The translations under genes and the position numbers were made by a program. A stretch of DNA of 64,000 nucleotides from Ustilago trichophora. Its lineage: Eukaryota; Basidiomycota; Ustilaginomycetes; Ustilaginales; Ustilaginaceae. The notes under the pieces were generated by a model that saw only the letters and a program-made list of their open reading frames with translations, had not been told where the DNA came from and did no database searches. Positions 35,953-43,083 of the stretch are shown here, in pieces. The DNA lies in NCBI GenBank assembly GCA_900323505.1, contig OOIN01000001.1:1240001-1304000 (forward strand), in the 5' to 3' direction. How positions within the stretch are numbered: the stretch's first letter is position 1; each line of letters starts with the position of its first letter.

Positions 35953-36930
35953 ATGGCTACGTCGCCGCTGCTCACATTGCACTATGCGAGCCTCGAAGAT
36001 GTTGCCCAGGACCTTGACATGGTGATTCAGTCATCTTCTTCGGAAGAGTGGTCGTGGCAAGGTGCCTCCGCACACGAGCAGCATGTTTGGTCGAGCTTTG
36101 TCCAAAATCCCTCTTTGGCTGCTTCGTCCACGGTAGCAGGTCTAGCAGGGAAACTTCAAGTAATGCCGGGGGTAGCGCTGTCGTTTTCGCTACCATCTTC
36201 ATCAAAAGAGCAAGAGGCAGCAGTCGACGTCTCAGCCCCAACGCTCCCACCCGACAGCGTAGCACGCATCAAGGAATCCCTCTTGAGCCGCTCCAAAGAG
36301 TGGTCAGAGGAAGGCATCGAATCGCTCTATCTCTTCGATCTCCTCACTACCGCACAAGCTCTTTTGTCCGGATTCCCCGATTTGCACTCCAACCACAGCA
36401 CTGCATCCGCACCCGAATCCAACCTTCAACCGGCCGGAGAAAATAATGGAACGAAGACGAGCATCAAGCTGTCACGCGCTCTTTTCTGGTCACATCACCT
36501 GAAAGCACCCTCCAAGTTGAAAGATTTCAACAATTGGTGTCCTGAGCTTGGCGTCTGGGGAGTTGTACGGGTTGGCTATCCTGGATACTTGTGCTTCGAA
36601 GGGGAGAGTAGTGCGGTCGATGAAATGGTGCGTCGGGTGAAAGGTCTACAGTGGCATGCTATTCAGCTACGCGTGCAGCGATCTTCTGTCCACGCTACCG
36701 ACCCCTCGAAGAAAGGAAAGGACGGACTCGGCCCAATGGAACAGGCGCTGTTGTCATGTGCGCTGGCCAAGAATCACCCCGATAATACCCACAAAGCCGG
36801 CGAAAAGGTCAGGACGGGCTGTCAGGTGATCGAGAACTTGGGAGAGCTGGTGGAAAGGCTGAGAGGTTGCGGGTTGGAAGAAGAAGAAATCTCGGAGGCG
36901 CTGGGGATCAAGCTCAGCGGGACGCAATGA
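35953..36930 (+). CDS. RWD and DUF1115 protein (RWDD2-like)
   Basis: A 325-residue protein. The N-terminal half reads as an RWD-like fold (TLHYASLEDVAQDLDMVIQ, later LLSRSKEWSEEGIESLYLFD). The DUF1115 region at about 175-235 is clear: SRALFWSHHLKAPSKLKDF, then LGVWGVVRVGYPGYLCFEGE and WHAIQLRV. These domains occur together in RWDD2-type proteins, whose cellular role is poorly known. The C terminus carries an acidic helix (GCGLEEEEISEALGI). The ATG is immediately preceded by an overlapping ATGTAA start-stop element at 35948. Confidence 0.85.
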   Translation: MATSPLLTLHYASLEDVAQDLDMVIQSSSSEEWSWQGASAHEQHVWSSFVQNPSLAASSTVAGLAGKLQVMPGVALSFSLPSSSKEQEAAVDVSAPTLPPDSVARIKESLLSRSKEWSEEGIESLYLFDLLTTAQALLSGFPDLHSNHSTASAPESNLQPAGENNGTKTSIKLSRALFWSHHLKAPSKLKDFNNWCPELGVWGVVRVGYPGYLCFEGESSAVDEMVRRVKGLQWHAIQLRVQRSSVHATDPSKKGKDGLGPMEQALLSCALAKNHPDNTHKAGEKVRTGCQVIENLGELVERLRGCGLEEEEISEALGIKLSGTQ

Positions 36931-37462: not shown

Positions 37463-38613
37463 TCAGAGACCGCGATATTCCTTCGCAATCGCTTGCATGC
37501 GAACGATTTGGCCTTCGGTGAACTCGGTTTTGCATCTATCGACTGTGTAGCTGTCATAGAGCAATTAAAAAGGCAGAAGAAAAAGCGAGCAGGTCAAATA
37601 GGTAAGAAACTTTCTTCTTTTACAAGGGTCCATTGACAATCTTTCCGAAGCAAGAAAAGGAGGAACACTCACTCCATGTGGCTGTGTGAAGGAATAGATG
37701 GTCAGTTTTGTAGCAAAAGAAAGATCAAGCGTGGTCAGCAGACGCTTCGAATTCTCGACATAAGAACAATTACTCACTTATGGATCGAGTCTACGCCACC
37801 TCCGGGGCAGGTGTCAGGAGCTGTTGTCGGACAACCATCCGATGGGCCAGCCTGGGGCGGCGTGTCATCCACAGAGTCGCCAGGAGCATTGCAAACATTT
37901 TCGAAGACATGTTTCAGGCCAAACCAGTGACCACTCTCGTGCGTTAACGCCTTCCCATGGTTGACTTCGTAGTCCTTTTGGAAGACCCCTGGCACCGTAG
38001 CATAATGAATAACCACCGCGTCGTGGAATAGCCCTCGCTGTTGGACTACCCATGGATACTGGGAAAACCCGGTAGTGAATCCTTGAGGCCCAGGTTTGAT
38101 CTTGAGACTGTACAGGTTGAGTGTCTTCATGTCGCCTTTGTGGAGTGCTTTCTCCATCTCGAGGTGAAGCGGTGTGATGCCTGAGATTTCACGGGACCAT
38201 TCCTTGTTCTCAACTTTCTTGGACTCCTGCAGGTTGAACACGAACCCGGCATCCTTGAAATCATTGTTGAGCACATCCATCTGCGCCTTAATCTGATCGG
38301 GAGTGAGATCTCCCTCGGGACCGTCGTGAATGACGTGCCATACAACCTGAACGGTCTTCGGCTGCTGAGCGAGAAGCTGGGAATCAGTGAGAGCGTGAGT
38401 ATTGCCTGATTCACCCTGAGAGCTGGTGATGCTAAGCTTTTGACCAAGATCGGCAAGACGCTCGCGCTCGGCCTTGACAAGGCTCTGGATGTGCTCGTCG
38501 ACTTTAGGATCTGTGTTTTCGGGCGCACCACAGCCAAACTTGCTGCCTTCAAAGGGATTGGTTTCACGTCTGGCCAGCTTGTGAATCTTGCCTAAAGTTG
38601 TCGAGTGCGCCAT
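37463..38613 (-). CDS. M43 (pappalysin/MEP1-like) metalloprotease, copy 1, signal peptide cut off by a stop codon
   Basis: Exons are 37778-38613, the 9-nt 37673-37681 and 37463-37550, giving 310 residues from ATG 38613. The zinc motif HESGHWFGLKH has H225, E226, H229 and H235. The DDTPPQ motif and paired Cys downstream are typical of M43. The Met-turn (N-H-M-D, M281) is completed by the microexon. A conserved N-terminal Cys (GCGAPEN, C28) matches the position of the family's cysteine switch. Upstream, ATG 38686-38688 opens a signal peptide closely similar to that of copy 2 (MLPFRQLFFALSMAFLVLQ), in the same frame but ended by TAG at 38623-38625. Without read-through the product would be non-secreted, or the gene is decaying. 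All catalytic residues are intact. Confidence 0.88.
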
Positions 38614-38806
38614 TGCCTGATGCTATTGCATTTGCAGCACAAGGAATGCCATGGAGAGCGCAAAGAAGAGCTGGCGGAAGGGCAGCATATCGGTATTCTG
38701 CTACTTGTAGTCTTGAAGCCTTGCGTTTTCTATTTTTTTGGGAGGAGAGGACGAAAAGAATTGTTGTGGATGTAAGTGTGGATGGCTGGACTGTCGTCCC
38801 GGCCTG

Positions 38807-38812
38807 CTTATA
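38807..38812 (-). promoter_or_regulatory. Probable TATA box of protease copy 1
   Basis: TATAAG on the minus strand, about 120 bp upstream of the signal-peptide ATG at 38688; copy 2 has a similar element at a similar distance. Confidence 0.45.
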
Positions 38813-39299
38813 TGCGTAACGGGTGCGTGGGATCTGTGAGCGGGCTGAGCACGGCGCAGCCGTCCTTGTGCAGTTCATCCATGCAGAAGTCGGCTCCAGC
38901 CATTTTGAAGCAGATTGGTGCGATTTGTGAGCCGGAGTGCTGTAAAACACGACCTTAGACCGGGCTTGCTGAGCCTTCTCGAGGCAGGTTAGGTGGGAAG
39001 TGTAGGAGCACGTTCACGCGGGTCAAAGACTCGAATCTGGCACGTTCAGGTGTGGAATGGTGGTCACCCAAGCTTGGTGGGGTAAGAGATGCAAGGTTAA
39101 TTGTACGGAGACTGGGTGATACAGTGCGGATTCGGGGAGCCAAAACTCGATCGGCGGGCCGGGAACTCGGGTTTCGAAGATGAACGTCGCTATCGTGGGC
39201 TTCGGTAAGGGAGAACAAATGTAGATTGCGGGAACTAGATGAAACAACTTGGGTGGATCGGAGGGGCAGGGCGGGACTGAGAGTGGGATGGGAATGAAA

Positions 39300-39490
39300 T
39301 GGGTTATCGTAAGGCTGAGACTGATCACGACATTCGCATTCCCCTCCCATCGCTTCACATCCTGCGGGCTGGCAAACCCCACAATGCTGAAAATGGTAGA
39401 TAGTGCCGCGGCTGGAATTAACAAAGCTGAAAAGATGGAACTCCAGCAAGCGAAACTGCCCGCTGAGAGCAGCTATACGTTGGACTAGCA
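39300..39490 (-). pseudogene. Relic of the 3' end of a fourth M43 protease
   Basis: On the minus strand the segment from 39490 reads VQRIAALSGQFRLL, against AVRMAALSGQYRSL-stop in copy 3, but the stop codon is lost (GAG in place of TAG). The flanking sequence to about 39300 stays similar to the 3' flank of copy 3 (41380-41523), for example GTGAAGCGATGGGAGG versus GTAAAGTGATGGGCAGG and a shared TTCCCATCCC. The zinc motif and first exon are absent. Confidence 0.6.
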
Positions 39491-39581
39491 TAGACTACTT
39501 GACAGAAGTGTGATAGCAGAATCGAGAGCGATGACGAGAGATCAACGTAATCCGCCACTAAGGAAGGCAGTCATAGCGCAC

Positions 39582-40759
39582 TCAGAGCGAGCGATATTCT
39601 TTAATCATCGCAGCCATGCGGACTATCTGGCCTTCGGTGAATTCGGTCGTACATACATCCCAGGAGTAGCTGCAGGTGACACAAAGGCATCAGGAGGTGA
39701 ATCAAGTCAGTGACATCGTACTGTAAAGTAGCCGTGGCCGTGAGAATAGAGGCAAAACTCACTCCATGAAGCTGTGTCGTAGTGCGATATCCAGCATGGC
39801 GAGATAATCAGTGAAGTACAATAGCAAAACAAAATCTCAGGTGATCAGCTTAGACCTTGGCATGTCGAAGCAGCAATGCCAACTTACTTGTGGATCGAGT
39901 CCACCCCGCCTCCGGGGCAACTGTCTTGAACTTTGGTTGGGCATCCGGACGTTATAGTTTTCTGCGGCGGGGTGTCGTCCACAAGATCACCAGGGGGATT
40001 GCATCCGTTCTCGAAAACGTGGTACAGCCCATGAAAGTGACCCGTCTCATGGGTTAGTGTTCTGCCTTGATTGAAATTTTTCATTGAACCCCCTGGCAAC
40101 GTTGCGTAGTGGATCAATGCACCATCGTTGGTCAAATTTGTCTTCGCTTCCCACGGAGGATGGCAATTTCCAATGACTCCATCTGGCATATCGAGACTGT
40201 ACACATTGAATGTCTTGACGTCGCCTTTGTGGAGTGCTGTCTTCATTTCATACTGAAGATAGGAATCAGGGGTAACCTTTCGGAACCATTCCGCGTTCTC
40301 GACCCTATTGATGTCTTGCAGGTTAAAAGCGATGCCGGCTTTTTTGTAATCTTTGTTGAGCACGTCTATCTGCGCCTTGATGGCATCGGGGGAGAGGTTC
40401 CCTTCGGCACCATCATGGATGGCGTGCCAAACAACTTGAAAGGTCGTCGGCTGTTGAGCGAGGAGCTGAGCATCAGTAAGAGTGCGAGCAGCGGCGGAAC
40501 TGGTGCTGAGACTTTGACGAAGATCAGCAAGACGCTTGCGTTCGGCCTTGACAAGGGTCTCGGTGTACTCGTCAATTTTTGGATCTGTGTGGAAGTTCGA
40601 GGAGCAGCGGATGATAGGCTTTGTAGGGGCGTCGATTCCGGATTTGTCGTCCTGCATCGGTCGTGCCTCTATCTGGCATGTTCCCTGTAGCTGCTGATGC
40701 ATCTGCAGCACAAGGAAAGCCACGGAGAGCGTAAAGAAGAGCTGGCGGAGGGTAAGCAT
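39582..40759 (-). CDS. M43 metalloprotease, copy 2, secreted
   Basis: Exons are 39888-40759, the 9-nt 39763-39771 and 39582-39669, giving 322 residues. An N-terminal signal peptide (MLTLRQLFFTLSVAFLVLQ) is followed by a prodomain with a Cys at the cysteine-switch position (IIRCSSNF). The zinc motif HETGHFHGLYH has H237, E238, H241 and H247, then DDTPPQ, paired Cys and the Met-turn NFMDYS (M293) completed by the microexon. Introns are 116 and 93 nt. Pappalysin-type enzymes are zinc endopeptidases; fungal members are mostly extracellular, so an external substrate is expected but unknown. Confidence 0.93.
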
Positions 40760-41523
40760 TTCTGTCGTCTATCCTGTAACGCCTGAGAGCCTTGTCTTAA
40801 GAAGGAAAGGGGCGTGTCGATGTGAATGCGGACTTTCAAGCTGTTTTGCATGTCAGTTTATATATGCAAAGGATGCGCAACAGCACAGCGCTCAGAGGGC
40901 GCTTTGTCTTCGCACAAGTTTGGTCGCATTTCTCAGACAGTAGCCTTGAGCTTGTGGTCCTAAGCAGGGAGCTCTGGCAGTTCTCGAGGCAAATCGAGTG
41001 GCTGTGTGTTGTTGCATCTCCGAGCCTACTGCTGAAAAGCCTCTCCGAGCAGAATGATGGACGTCCTCGTTCTTCTGAGCTCTGTGGGCCATATGCGAGA
41101 CAAGTCAATGGCTTGAGAAGCAAATTTGCGATACGTACACATTCGGTGGATTCGACGCTCGACCAGTCGGATGATTGGTGACGTGGGAAAAAATGCTGAT
41201 ATTGAAGCCTTCGTTGAAGAAAAAGCAAATACAGTAATGTACAGTACAGTACATGTAAATAGCAGAACAGCATAAATTGCGACCATCCCGAACCGGCAGG
41301 AAGACCTCACTACAGCTGAGAAAGCGGGACGAGAGTTCAAGGATGGGGATGGGAATAGTGTGGGCTATGGAAGGCAGAATGATCTAGGGCAATCACTGCA
41401 TTAGCAGTTCCTGCCCATCACTTTACAACCTCCCACGCTGACGCAGACGCAATGCGCGCTGGTTCTCTCACGAGGGTGGGAAAGGTTGCTGTATCTGCTG
41501 ATTCGACTGCTATGAAGGTGGAT
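40760..41523. other. Intergenic region between protease copies 2 and 3
   Basis: This holds the copy 2 promoter and the 3' flank of copy 3. A cluster of TACAGTAC-type repeats lies at 41231-41258. Confidence 0.5.
40857..40864 (-). promoter_or_regulatory. TATA box of protease copy 2
   Basis: TATATAAA on the minus strand, about 98 bp upstream of the ATG at 40759. Confidence 0.6.
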
Positions 41524-43083
41524 CTAGAGCGAACGATACTGCCCACTGAGAGCAGCCATGCGAACTGCTTGGCCCTCGGTGAACTCAGTAAGACATGCGT
41601 CGCTCGAGTAGCTGTGATTTCCGAAAGGTGAGCAGAGAGATAGCAGGTCAGTAAGAAAATCCTTGCCATCTTTCTTTGAAGAGCATTTACTTACTCCATG
41701 TAGCTGATCCACCAACAACAGCAAAGACGTTAAAGAAAATTTAAAATGGTCAGCAAAAGATCGTGCATCTTCCCATGGTGGTAACGTGGTGGATACCTAC
41801 TTATGAATCGAGTCCACGCCGCCGCCCCTGCAGCTATCCTGACCAACGGGACATCCGTTCGTCGCCACACTCTGCGGCGGGGTGTCGTCTACGTAGTCAC
41901 CTGGTGCCTCACATCCGCCCTGAAACACGTGATACAGTCCCAACCAGTGACCCACCTCGTGCGTCGCTGTCTTTCCCAGATTGTATCCCGTCTCGCTTCC
42001 TCCTGGTACCGTGCTATACTGGAATACGACACCATCATTTTTCAGATTGTCTTTGACGTTCCAAGGGAAGGTTGCGTATCCTAACAAGCCATTGTTGAAA
42101 TCAACGCTGTAGAGGTTGAGGGTCTTCTGGTCTCCCTTGCGAAGAGCGTTTTTCATTTCGGTTTGCAGGTTGGTGTCGGGCGAAATATTCTTGTACCACT
42201 GTGTGTTGTTGACGCGGTTGGTGGTGGTGAGATCAAAAGAGAAGCCGTAAGCCTTGTAGTCGTCGTTCAAGACTTCGATTTGGTCCTGTATCATTGTGTC
42301 GGACAAGTTTCCTGCACGACCAGAGTGGATGACATGCCACACGACTTGCACTGTTTTCGTCTGCTCAGCGAGGAGCTTTGCATCGGTCAAAGAGCGCGGG
42401 TCAGTGGCTTTGCTATTGGAGCTGGAAGAGCGCTGCTGACGGATGGCGGCGAGTCGTTTGCGCTCTGCCTTGACAAGGTGCTGAGAGATGTCGTCAACCG
42501 TGCGGTTCGTGTTGGCCGGCTGGGCGCAGAAACGAGTGCGGGGCTGTTGGAGGGCATTGTGCACTGCTTTAGTTTTCGGAGGGTCCTTCTTGGGAGTGGT
42601 ATCTTTCTGGTCTTGATCTTTGTCCTGGGTGTCAGAGTTGTTCTTGGCGGAAGCCTCGCTTTTTTGGGGGTTATCGCCCTTCTTGGGCTCTTTGTCATCC
42701 TTCTTATCTTCCTTGTCTGAGGTTTTGTCCTTGACATCATCACTCGCTTTCCCATCGGCATTAGCTTTAGCCTTAGGCTGAACTGGCCCGCCATCACCAT
42801 GAGAAATGACAATCATCGGCTTATTGTCCTCTTCATCGCCATCCGTCTGGATTCCATTTGCTAGGGCCTGAAGAGCCTTCAGCACGGCCTCAGGGTCCAT
42901 TGTTGTCTGCCCATCCGAATCCGAGATCGACGCTCTCGGTTGGGTAGCAAGCACCTGTACATCACCCGCTTCGTTCTGTACCGGCCTTGCAAGCGCCTGA
43001 CCCCCTTCATGCAGAGACTGGTGCGCCTGTAGCACAAAGAGAGCGAGGGAAATTGTGGAAAGAAGCTGGCGGAAGGGCTGCAT
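41524..43083 (-). CDS. M43 metalloprotease, copy 3, with Lys/Asp-rich N-terminal extension
   Basis: Exons are 41801-43083, the 9-nt 41695-41703 and 41524-41611, giving 459 residues. The signal peptide starts MQPFRQLLSTISLALFVLQ. Between it and the conserved domain lies an extra ~130 residues, including a Lys/Asp/Ser-rich disordered stretch at about 85-170 absent from copies 1 and 2. The cysteine-switch position reads RFCAQP. The zinc motif HEVGHWLGLYH has H375, E376, H379 and H385, then DDTPPQ and the Met-turn NYMDYS (M430) completed by the microexon. Introns are 97 and 83 nt. It is likely a secreted zinc endopeptidase with a distinct propeptide or surface tether. Confidence 0.93.

What the first reader, a model, noticed from the sequence alone, without database searches (positions are those of the whole stretch)
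37673..41703. A 9-nt microexon carrying the Met-turn, conserved in three tandem M43 metalloproteases
In each of the three proteases the frame stops one codon after DSIH unless it is spliced. Splicing to a 9-nt exon (37673-37681, 39763-39771, 41695-41703; CCACATGGA, CTTCATGGA, CTACATGGA) and then to an 88-nt exon gives N-x-M-D-Y and a normal C terminus in all three. The ATG in the microexon codes for the Met-turn methionine, a structural hallmark below the metzincin zinc site. Because the exon is 9 nt, skipping it keeps the frame but deletes the Met-turn. Retention of the first intron gives an immediate stop (AAG then TGA, TAA or TAG). Splicing could therefore switch between active and inactive protease. 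The exon pattern is read directly from the sequence; the switch is inference.
Basis: partly seen in the sequence, partly recalled or inferred. Interest (0 to 1): 0.8.

Follow-up and report, generated by a model that had tools for sequence, protein, structure and literature searches.

The report
Nine-base exon completing a fungal protease
[quoted passage not shown] it looks like a normally included exon rather than an on/off switch.

Summary
The anatomy is real and the coordinates are exact. In all three tandem M43 protease genes of this Ustilago trichophora window only one of the GT-AG models tested restores N-x-M-D-Y: long exon, 9-nt exon, 88-nt exon, both introns in phase 2. The three homeologous genes on the other chromosome set match. 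Homology to mirolysin puts the methionine at the Met-turn. Deposited models for two window genes and two homeologues already include the exon. It is old: 24 of 31 rows of the smut clade are scored as having intron 1, and one 3-row clade has the exons fused. Four deposited models (K. brasiliensis, U. bromivora, U. nuda, U. hordei) lack exactly its three residues, though a 98%-identical relative includes them: probably misannotation. The switch is unsupported: the stop on retention follows mechanically from a phase-2 GTRAG donor, one relative lacks it, and one lineage cannot skip. I read it as a constitutive microexon, closest in kind to the 9-nt DPN exon of plant invertases. No RNA was available.

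The parts
37778..38613 (-). copy 1, long exon of the deposited model (ends ..DSIH + AA); holds HESGHWFGLKH; deposited model P0008 starts at MAHST
   Evidence: PF05572 E=8.9e-9
37682..37777 (-). copy 1, intron 1, 96 nt, GTGAGT..ACACAG, phase 2
37673..37681 (-). copy 1, microexon CCACATGGA (with flanking bases: N-H-M-D)
37551..37672 (-). copy 1, intron 2, 122 nt, GTGAGT..TGACAG, phase 2
37463..37550 (-). copy 1, last exon, 88 nt, to TGA
39888..40759 (-). copy 2, long exon; HETGHFHGLYH; deposited model P0001 (322 aa)
   Evidence: PF05572 E=4.7e-11
39772..39887 (-). copy 2, intron 1, 116 nt, GTAAGT..ACACAG, phase 2
39763..39771 (-). copy 2, microexon CTTCATGGA (N-F-M-D)
39670..39762 (-). copy 2, intron 2, 93 nt, GTGAGT..CTGCAG, phase 2
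39582..39669 (-). copy 2, last exon, 88 nt, to TGA
41801..43083 (-). copy 3, long exon; HEVGHWLGLYH
   Evidence: PF05572 E=3.8e-10
41704..41800 (-). copy 3, intron 1, 97 nt, GTAGGT..GATCAG, phase 2
41695..41703 (-). copy 3, microexon CTACATGGA (N-Y-M-D)
41612..41694 (-). copy 3, intron 2, 83 nt, GTAAGT..TCACAG, phase 2
41524..41611 (-). copy 3, last exon, 88 nt, to TAG

Best explanation
A constitutively included 9-nt microexon. It exists because two ordinary short phase-2 introns sit 9 nt apart in the ancestral gene of one smut-fungus M43 subfamily, in the codons for the Met-turn. Splicing of both introns (probably one after the other, since the two splice sites are too close for two spliceosomes at once) gives N-x-M-D-Y and a normal pappalysin-type zinc protease, secreted to judge by its N terminus. 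Skipped or retained transcripts would be splicing errors that yield a dead or truncated protein. Shown here: anatomy, homology, conservation of the split, deposited models with and without the exon. Inferred: inclusion in mRNA, order of splicing, precise loss of intron 1 in one lineage (from protein frames), inactivity of the skip form.
For: Only tested model that restores the family motif, in all three genes. Same structure in the three C2 homeologues; the 9 nt are identical at 26 of 27 positions while intron 1 is 59-80% and intron 2 62-78% identical. Purifying selection on the long exons between C1 and C2: dN/dS 0.16 (copy 2), 0.11 (copy 3); copy 1 was not computed. In 11 of 12 introns the last branch-site-like NCTRAY is followed by no AG before the acceptor; 1 of 12 (copy 1 intron 2 on C1) has no such site. 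Deposited models P0001, P0004, P0008 and P0030 include the exon. In the 31-row smut clade 24 rows are scored as having intron 1 and 3 end in ..DSIHNYME, i.e. the exon1-microexon junction without an intron. P0132 reads through a 111-nt intron 1 into S-Y-M-E and stops at intron 2. P0123, a 428-aa frame with NYMDY on a 1,856-nt contig, nested among intron-bearing rows, may be a cDNA.
Against: No transcript was seen. Four deposited models lack the exon's residues, and U. bromivora models were checked by hand with RNA-seq (82.3% confirmed by assembled transcripts; 20 genes with splice variants; PMC5106213 passages), so a real skipped isoform there is not excluded. Long branch-site to acceptor distances in intron 1 of copy 3 (46-47 nt) could lower efficiency.
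Confidence: 0.86

Rival explanations
1. Regulated splicing switch: inclusion makes active protease, skipping makes a full-length but inactive or inhibitory form, and the ratio is controlled by growth stage or host contact.
For: 9 nt and phase 2 on both sides keep the frame on skipping. Four deposited models have exactly the skip form, one from a species whose models were checked against RNA-seq. Precedent: Trichoderma Xlr2 microexon switch (PMC11121469, abstract and introduction read).
Against: The P. hubeiensis-like clade cannot skip, by its protein frames. The U. bromivora skip model and the Ustilago sp. UG-2017b inclusion model agree at 378 of 387 ungapped columns, with tails that differ only by YMD (the two models also differ by other gaps, 54 gap columns in all), so the difference looks like annotation. 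Introns are poorly conserved between homeologues and paralogues (46-80% identity); I made no search for short conserved regulatory motifs. The stop on retention is automatic.
Confidence: 0.08
2. Unproductive splicing as a dimmer: retention of intron 1 or 2 gives a premature stop and lowers protease output by transcript decay.
For: Retention of intron 1 or of intron 2 gives an immediate stop in all three window copies. Retention is the common fungal form of alternative splicing (recalled); in Cryptococcus 11.4% of introns have an intron/exon transcription ratio above 0.05 (PMC3990503 passages).
Against: Any phase-2 GTRAG intron does this; the intron-1 stop is absent in P0132. Nothing here is specific to these genes.
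Confidence: 0.05
3. The genes are decayed and the microexon is an accidental reading of a broken C terminus.
For: Copy 1 carries lesions on both chromosome sets.
Against: Copies 2 and 3 have open long exons and are under purifying selection; the same split is seen across the smut clade.
Confidence: 0.01

Closest known systems
9-nt mini-exon (DPN) of plant acid invertases and 1-FEH (GH32)
   Same: 9-nt exon that supplies three residues inside an active-site motif of an enzyme; frame-neutral; dropped by genome annotations (PMC8831610 passages); loss of the mini-exon in chicory 1-FEH IIb gives a putative non-functional allele (PMC4477480 passages).
   Different: Different enzyme, kingdom and codon phase (phase 1 there, phase 2 here). 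Cold-induced skipping was reported for potato invertase (title seen in a reference list; paper not held); no RNA evidence here.
Xlr2 microexon of Trichoderma virens
   Same: Microexon in a fungus; inclusion decides whether a DNA-binding domain is present (PMC11121469 abstract).
   Different: There two isoforms were reported under low and high glucose; a transcription factor; ascomycete. Here no isoforms are shown.
Microexons of Phanerochaete chrysosporium P450 genes
   Same: Basidiomycete; exons down to 6 bp between small introns, spread over many genes (PMC1184071 passages).
   Different: Not tied to one active-site motif or P450 family.
Lower pappalysins mirolysin and ulilysin (M43)
   Different: Prokaryotic genes; 26-33% identity to P0001 in the structural alignments.

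Membership tests
M43 pappalysin family (lower pappalysins) | HEXXHXXGXXH zinc motif | tested here: met
   HESGHWFGLKH, HETGHFHGLYH, HEVGHWLGLYH in copies 1-3; PF05572 over cut-off in all three
M43 pappalysin family (lower pappalysins) | Met-turn N-x-M-D and switch tyrosine after it | tested here: met
   NHMDY, NFMDY, NYMDY when the microexon is included; P0001 aligns to NYMDY of mirolysin; Met-turn = Asn282-Asp285, Tyr286 in mirolysin (PMC6949598 passages)
M43 pappalysin family (lower pappalysins) | Pappalysin fold | tested here: met
M43 pappalysin family (lower pappalysins) | Prosegment with cysteine-switch Cys | tested here: inconclusive
   Cys52 of P0001 lies in a column conserved in 90% or more of 50 rows; zinc binding not tested
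M43 pappalysin family (lower pappalysins) | Proteolytic activity | not testable with these tools
   no assay
Microexon (internal exon of about 3-30 nt) | Length and canonical flanking splice sites | tested here: met
   9 nt, CAG before, GTRAGT after, in 6 of 6 gene copies
Microexon (internal exon of about 3-30 nt) | Seen in mRNA | not testable with these tools
   no RNA held; P0123 may be a cDNA frame
Regulated microexon switch (Xlr2 type) | Two isoforms with condition-dependent ratio | not testable with these tools
   no RNA held
Regulated microexon switch (Xlr2 type) | Possibility of skipping conserved across the family | tested here: not met
   3 of 31 rows, one supported clade (99/96), show no intron 1; read from protein frames: P0121 is a deposited model, P0005 and P0006 come from unnamed contigs whose DNA was not seen

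The most novel reading that the evidence does not exclude
Smut fungi regulate inclusion of the 9-nt Met-turn exon in this protease subfamily, so that a frame-preserving skip makes a secreted, catalytically dead look-alike that competes for substrates, inhibitors or host sensors; the four deposited skip models would then reflect real transcripts.
Probability: 0.06. Interest if true: 0.75.

Novelty: new member of a known kind. Interest (0 to 1): 0.36.

Why it matters
It is a clean fungal counterpart of the plant invertase mini-exon: an active-site motif split by two introns and kept so through most of a family. Deposited models of four smut species lack the Met-turn residues of this protease and two more models stop at intron 1, so structure predictions and secretome tables built on them would be wrong at the active site. 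If skipping did prove to be regulated, it would be a simple one-exon control of a protease.
Full report
What was checked. The three genes lie on the minus strand of a 64-kb window from an assembly of 38.8 Mb in 45 contigs. Contig sizes and an identical protein name the organism: P0001, P0004, P0008 and P0030 are deposited from Ustilago trichophora, on contigs of 2,679,685 and 2,685,375 bases, which are C1 (with the window) and C2 here. P0001 is the window's copy 2 and P0008 its copy 1; P0004 and P0030 are the C2 homeologues of copies 3 and 1; a deposited model of the window's own copy 3 was not among the listed rows. Each gene reads openly to ..VDSIHK and a stop. With the 9-nt exon and the 88-nt exon each reads DSIHN-x-MDY and on to a stop at a C terminus typical of the family.

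Is it more than chance? The sequence pattern alone is not: three matches against 1.30 expected. But an enumeration of GT-AG models shows that in each gene one and only one of them gives N-x-M-D-Y (1 of 77, 1 of 7, 1 of 5 open two-intron models; none of 4, 1 and 7 single-intron models). The homeologous genes on C2 have the same structure. Between C1 and C2 the 9 nt agree at 26 of 27 positions over three gene pairs, the last exon at 64, 75 and 81 of 88, intron 1 at 59-80% and intron 2 at 62-78%. Copy 2 and copy 3 long exons have dS 0.67 and 0.44 and dN/dS 0.16 and 0.11; copy 1 was left out because its frames are broken.

What the exon encodes. The long exons match PF05572, and P0001 aligns with mirolysin and ulilysin over the zinc motif and on through N-Y-M-D-Y of mirolysin. 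In mirolysin the Met-turn is Asn282-Asp285 and the switch tyrosine is Tyr286 (PMC6949598, passages). So the microexon, with the bases beside it, gives residues 2 to 4 of the Met-turn. A model of P0001 (pLDDT 87.5) has mirolysin, ulilysin, PAPP-A and PAPP-A2 entries as its 18 best rows. Skipping would leave N-Y: the turn is gone and the tyrosine moves up. The methionine itself is not sacrosanct: 5 of the 216 relatives read N-x-L-D-Y (P0025, P0165, P0166, P0201, P0210), M290L and M290C ulilysin have solved structures (PDB titles), and in other metzincins its replacement ranged from minor to harmful (PMC1266349 passages). Three missing residues are another matter, but inactivity is inferred, not shown; a model of the deposited skip form still folds as a pappalysin.

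How widespread. Of the 216 proteins listed in two searches (best 120 of 212, and best 120 of 3,428), 173 read N-x-M-D-Y, 14 end in DSIHK, 4 end in NxME, 3 in MDYS, 2 in DP and 20 are other. On a tree of 53 rows (51 of the 216 and two long exons from DNA) with the trait's own columns cut off, one clade of 31 rows (97/92) holds the window's genes. In it 5 rows show the split in DNA seen here, 14 have frames that end in DSIHK, 4 are models that lack the three residues, 1 reads through intron 1, 3 end in NYME and 4 are full models whose DNA I have not seen. The first 24 are scored as having intron 1; for the 4 skip models that is inference. The three NYME rows (P0005, P0006, P. hubeiensis P0121) form one clade (99/96) inside. 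Two changes of intron-1 state are the fewest over 28 scored rows, one of which is a Tilletia row outside the clade. I read this as an old intron lost once, precisely; direction rests on the outgroup, where frames of Exobasidiomycete-like rows from an unnamed source are whole (P0151, P0157, P0188, P0206), and is inference. Frames that end in DSIHK could in part come from intron-retaining transcripts, but contigs of up to 423,445 bases (P0124) and 63,494 bases (P0122) speak for genomic DNA.

Annotation. Deposited models of this subfamily, P0030 included (it was not in the tree), fall into: exon residues present in 7 (P0001, P0004, P0007, P0008, P0030, P0128, P0136), exactly the three residues missing in 4 (P0010 K. 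brasiliensis, P0127 U. bromivora, P0130 U. nuda, P0135 U. hordei), stop at intron 1 in 2 (P0134 Melanopsichium, P0124 unnamed), stop at intron 2 in 1 (P0121 P. hubeiensis). P0127 and P0128 agree at 378 of 387 ungapped positions, with 54 gap columns in all, and their tails differ only by YMD. U. bromivora models came from U. hordei proteins mapped by exonerate, GeneMark-ES and TopHat2 reads, with manual curation (PMC5106213, passages), so the skip models may not be independent of each other; how the others were made I did not look up. Misannotation is the simple reading, as in plants, where most small microexons were not annotated (PMC8831610, abstract and passages).

Why not a switch. First, an intron in phase 2 that starts GTRAG or GTAGG must put TAA, TGA or TAG in the next codon; all six gene copies start so, and any such intron would. 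P0132 does not: its intron 1 (111 nt, donor GTAYGT by back-reading) stays open into S-Y-M-E and stops at intron 2. Second, a lineage that seems to lack intron 1 keeps the gene. Third, donors are strong, and in 11 of 12 introns no AG lies between the last branch-site-like sequence and the acceptor. Fourth, the introns themselves are poorly conserved. None of this excludes low-level skipping, and only RNA can settle it.

Mechanism. Two short introns, each recognised as a unit (intron definition, established for fungi; recalled), are removed in turn. In plants the downstream intron of a microexon tends to go first (PMC8831610, passages). The product is a normal protease. Confidence 0.86 that the exon is constitutive.

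Known kin. The nearest match in kind is the 9-nt DPN exon of plant invertases. Fungal microexons are known (P450 genes; Xlr2). I found no paper on this one in the searches, which cover open-licence full text only and of which two showed part of their lists. Hence: a new member of a known kind, with moderate interest.

Noticed in passing
window 37463-43083 against L001, L003, L006: The 38.8-Mb assembly seems to hold two diverged chromosome sets: C1 and C2 copies of genes 2 and 3 differ by dS 0.67 and 0.44, far beyond usual alleles, while other U. trichophora assemblies are 20.7 Mb (PMC4966473 abstract start in a listing; PMC8951962 outline). It looks like a hybrid or a two-species dikaryon; only this locus was compared.
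   Followed up: partly
window about 38614-38700; L006 about 1680-2340: Copy 1 is decaying on both chromosome sets: on C1 a stop lies in frame upstream of the annotated start, in what looks by eye like the signal-peptide part; on C2 a stop in the same part (by eye) and a break of the frame before the zinc motif (two separate matches). The deposited C2 model P0030 lacks the HExxH part. Splice signals are intact in both. Described only.
   Followed up: partly
proteins P0017, P0021, P0029, P0051, P0053, P0058, P0061, P0072, P0081, P0104: In Agaricomycete-type M43 rows other introns seem to crowd round the Met-turn (frames end at VDP or MDYS, or run on as PDR or LDR..), and a Ceratobasidium model (P0061) lacks HNYMDYT(I): perhaps an independent small exon of about 24 nt over the same motif.
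   Followed up: no
[quoted passage not shown]
   Followed up: no
protein P0123 (contig of 1,856 bases): Frame without introns and with NYMDY inside the intron-bearing clade: a cDNA contig (direct evidence for inclusion) or a gene that lost both introns.
   Followed up: partly
window 35953-36930: Gene on the + strand next to the cluster with a match just over cut-off to the Prp3 C-terminal domain (PF06544, E=7.2e-7).
   Followed up: no
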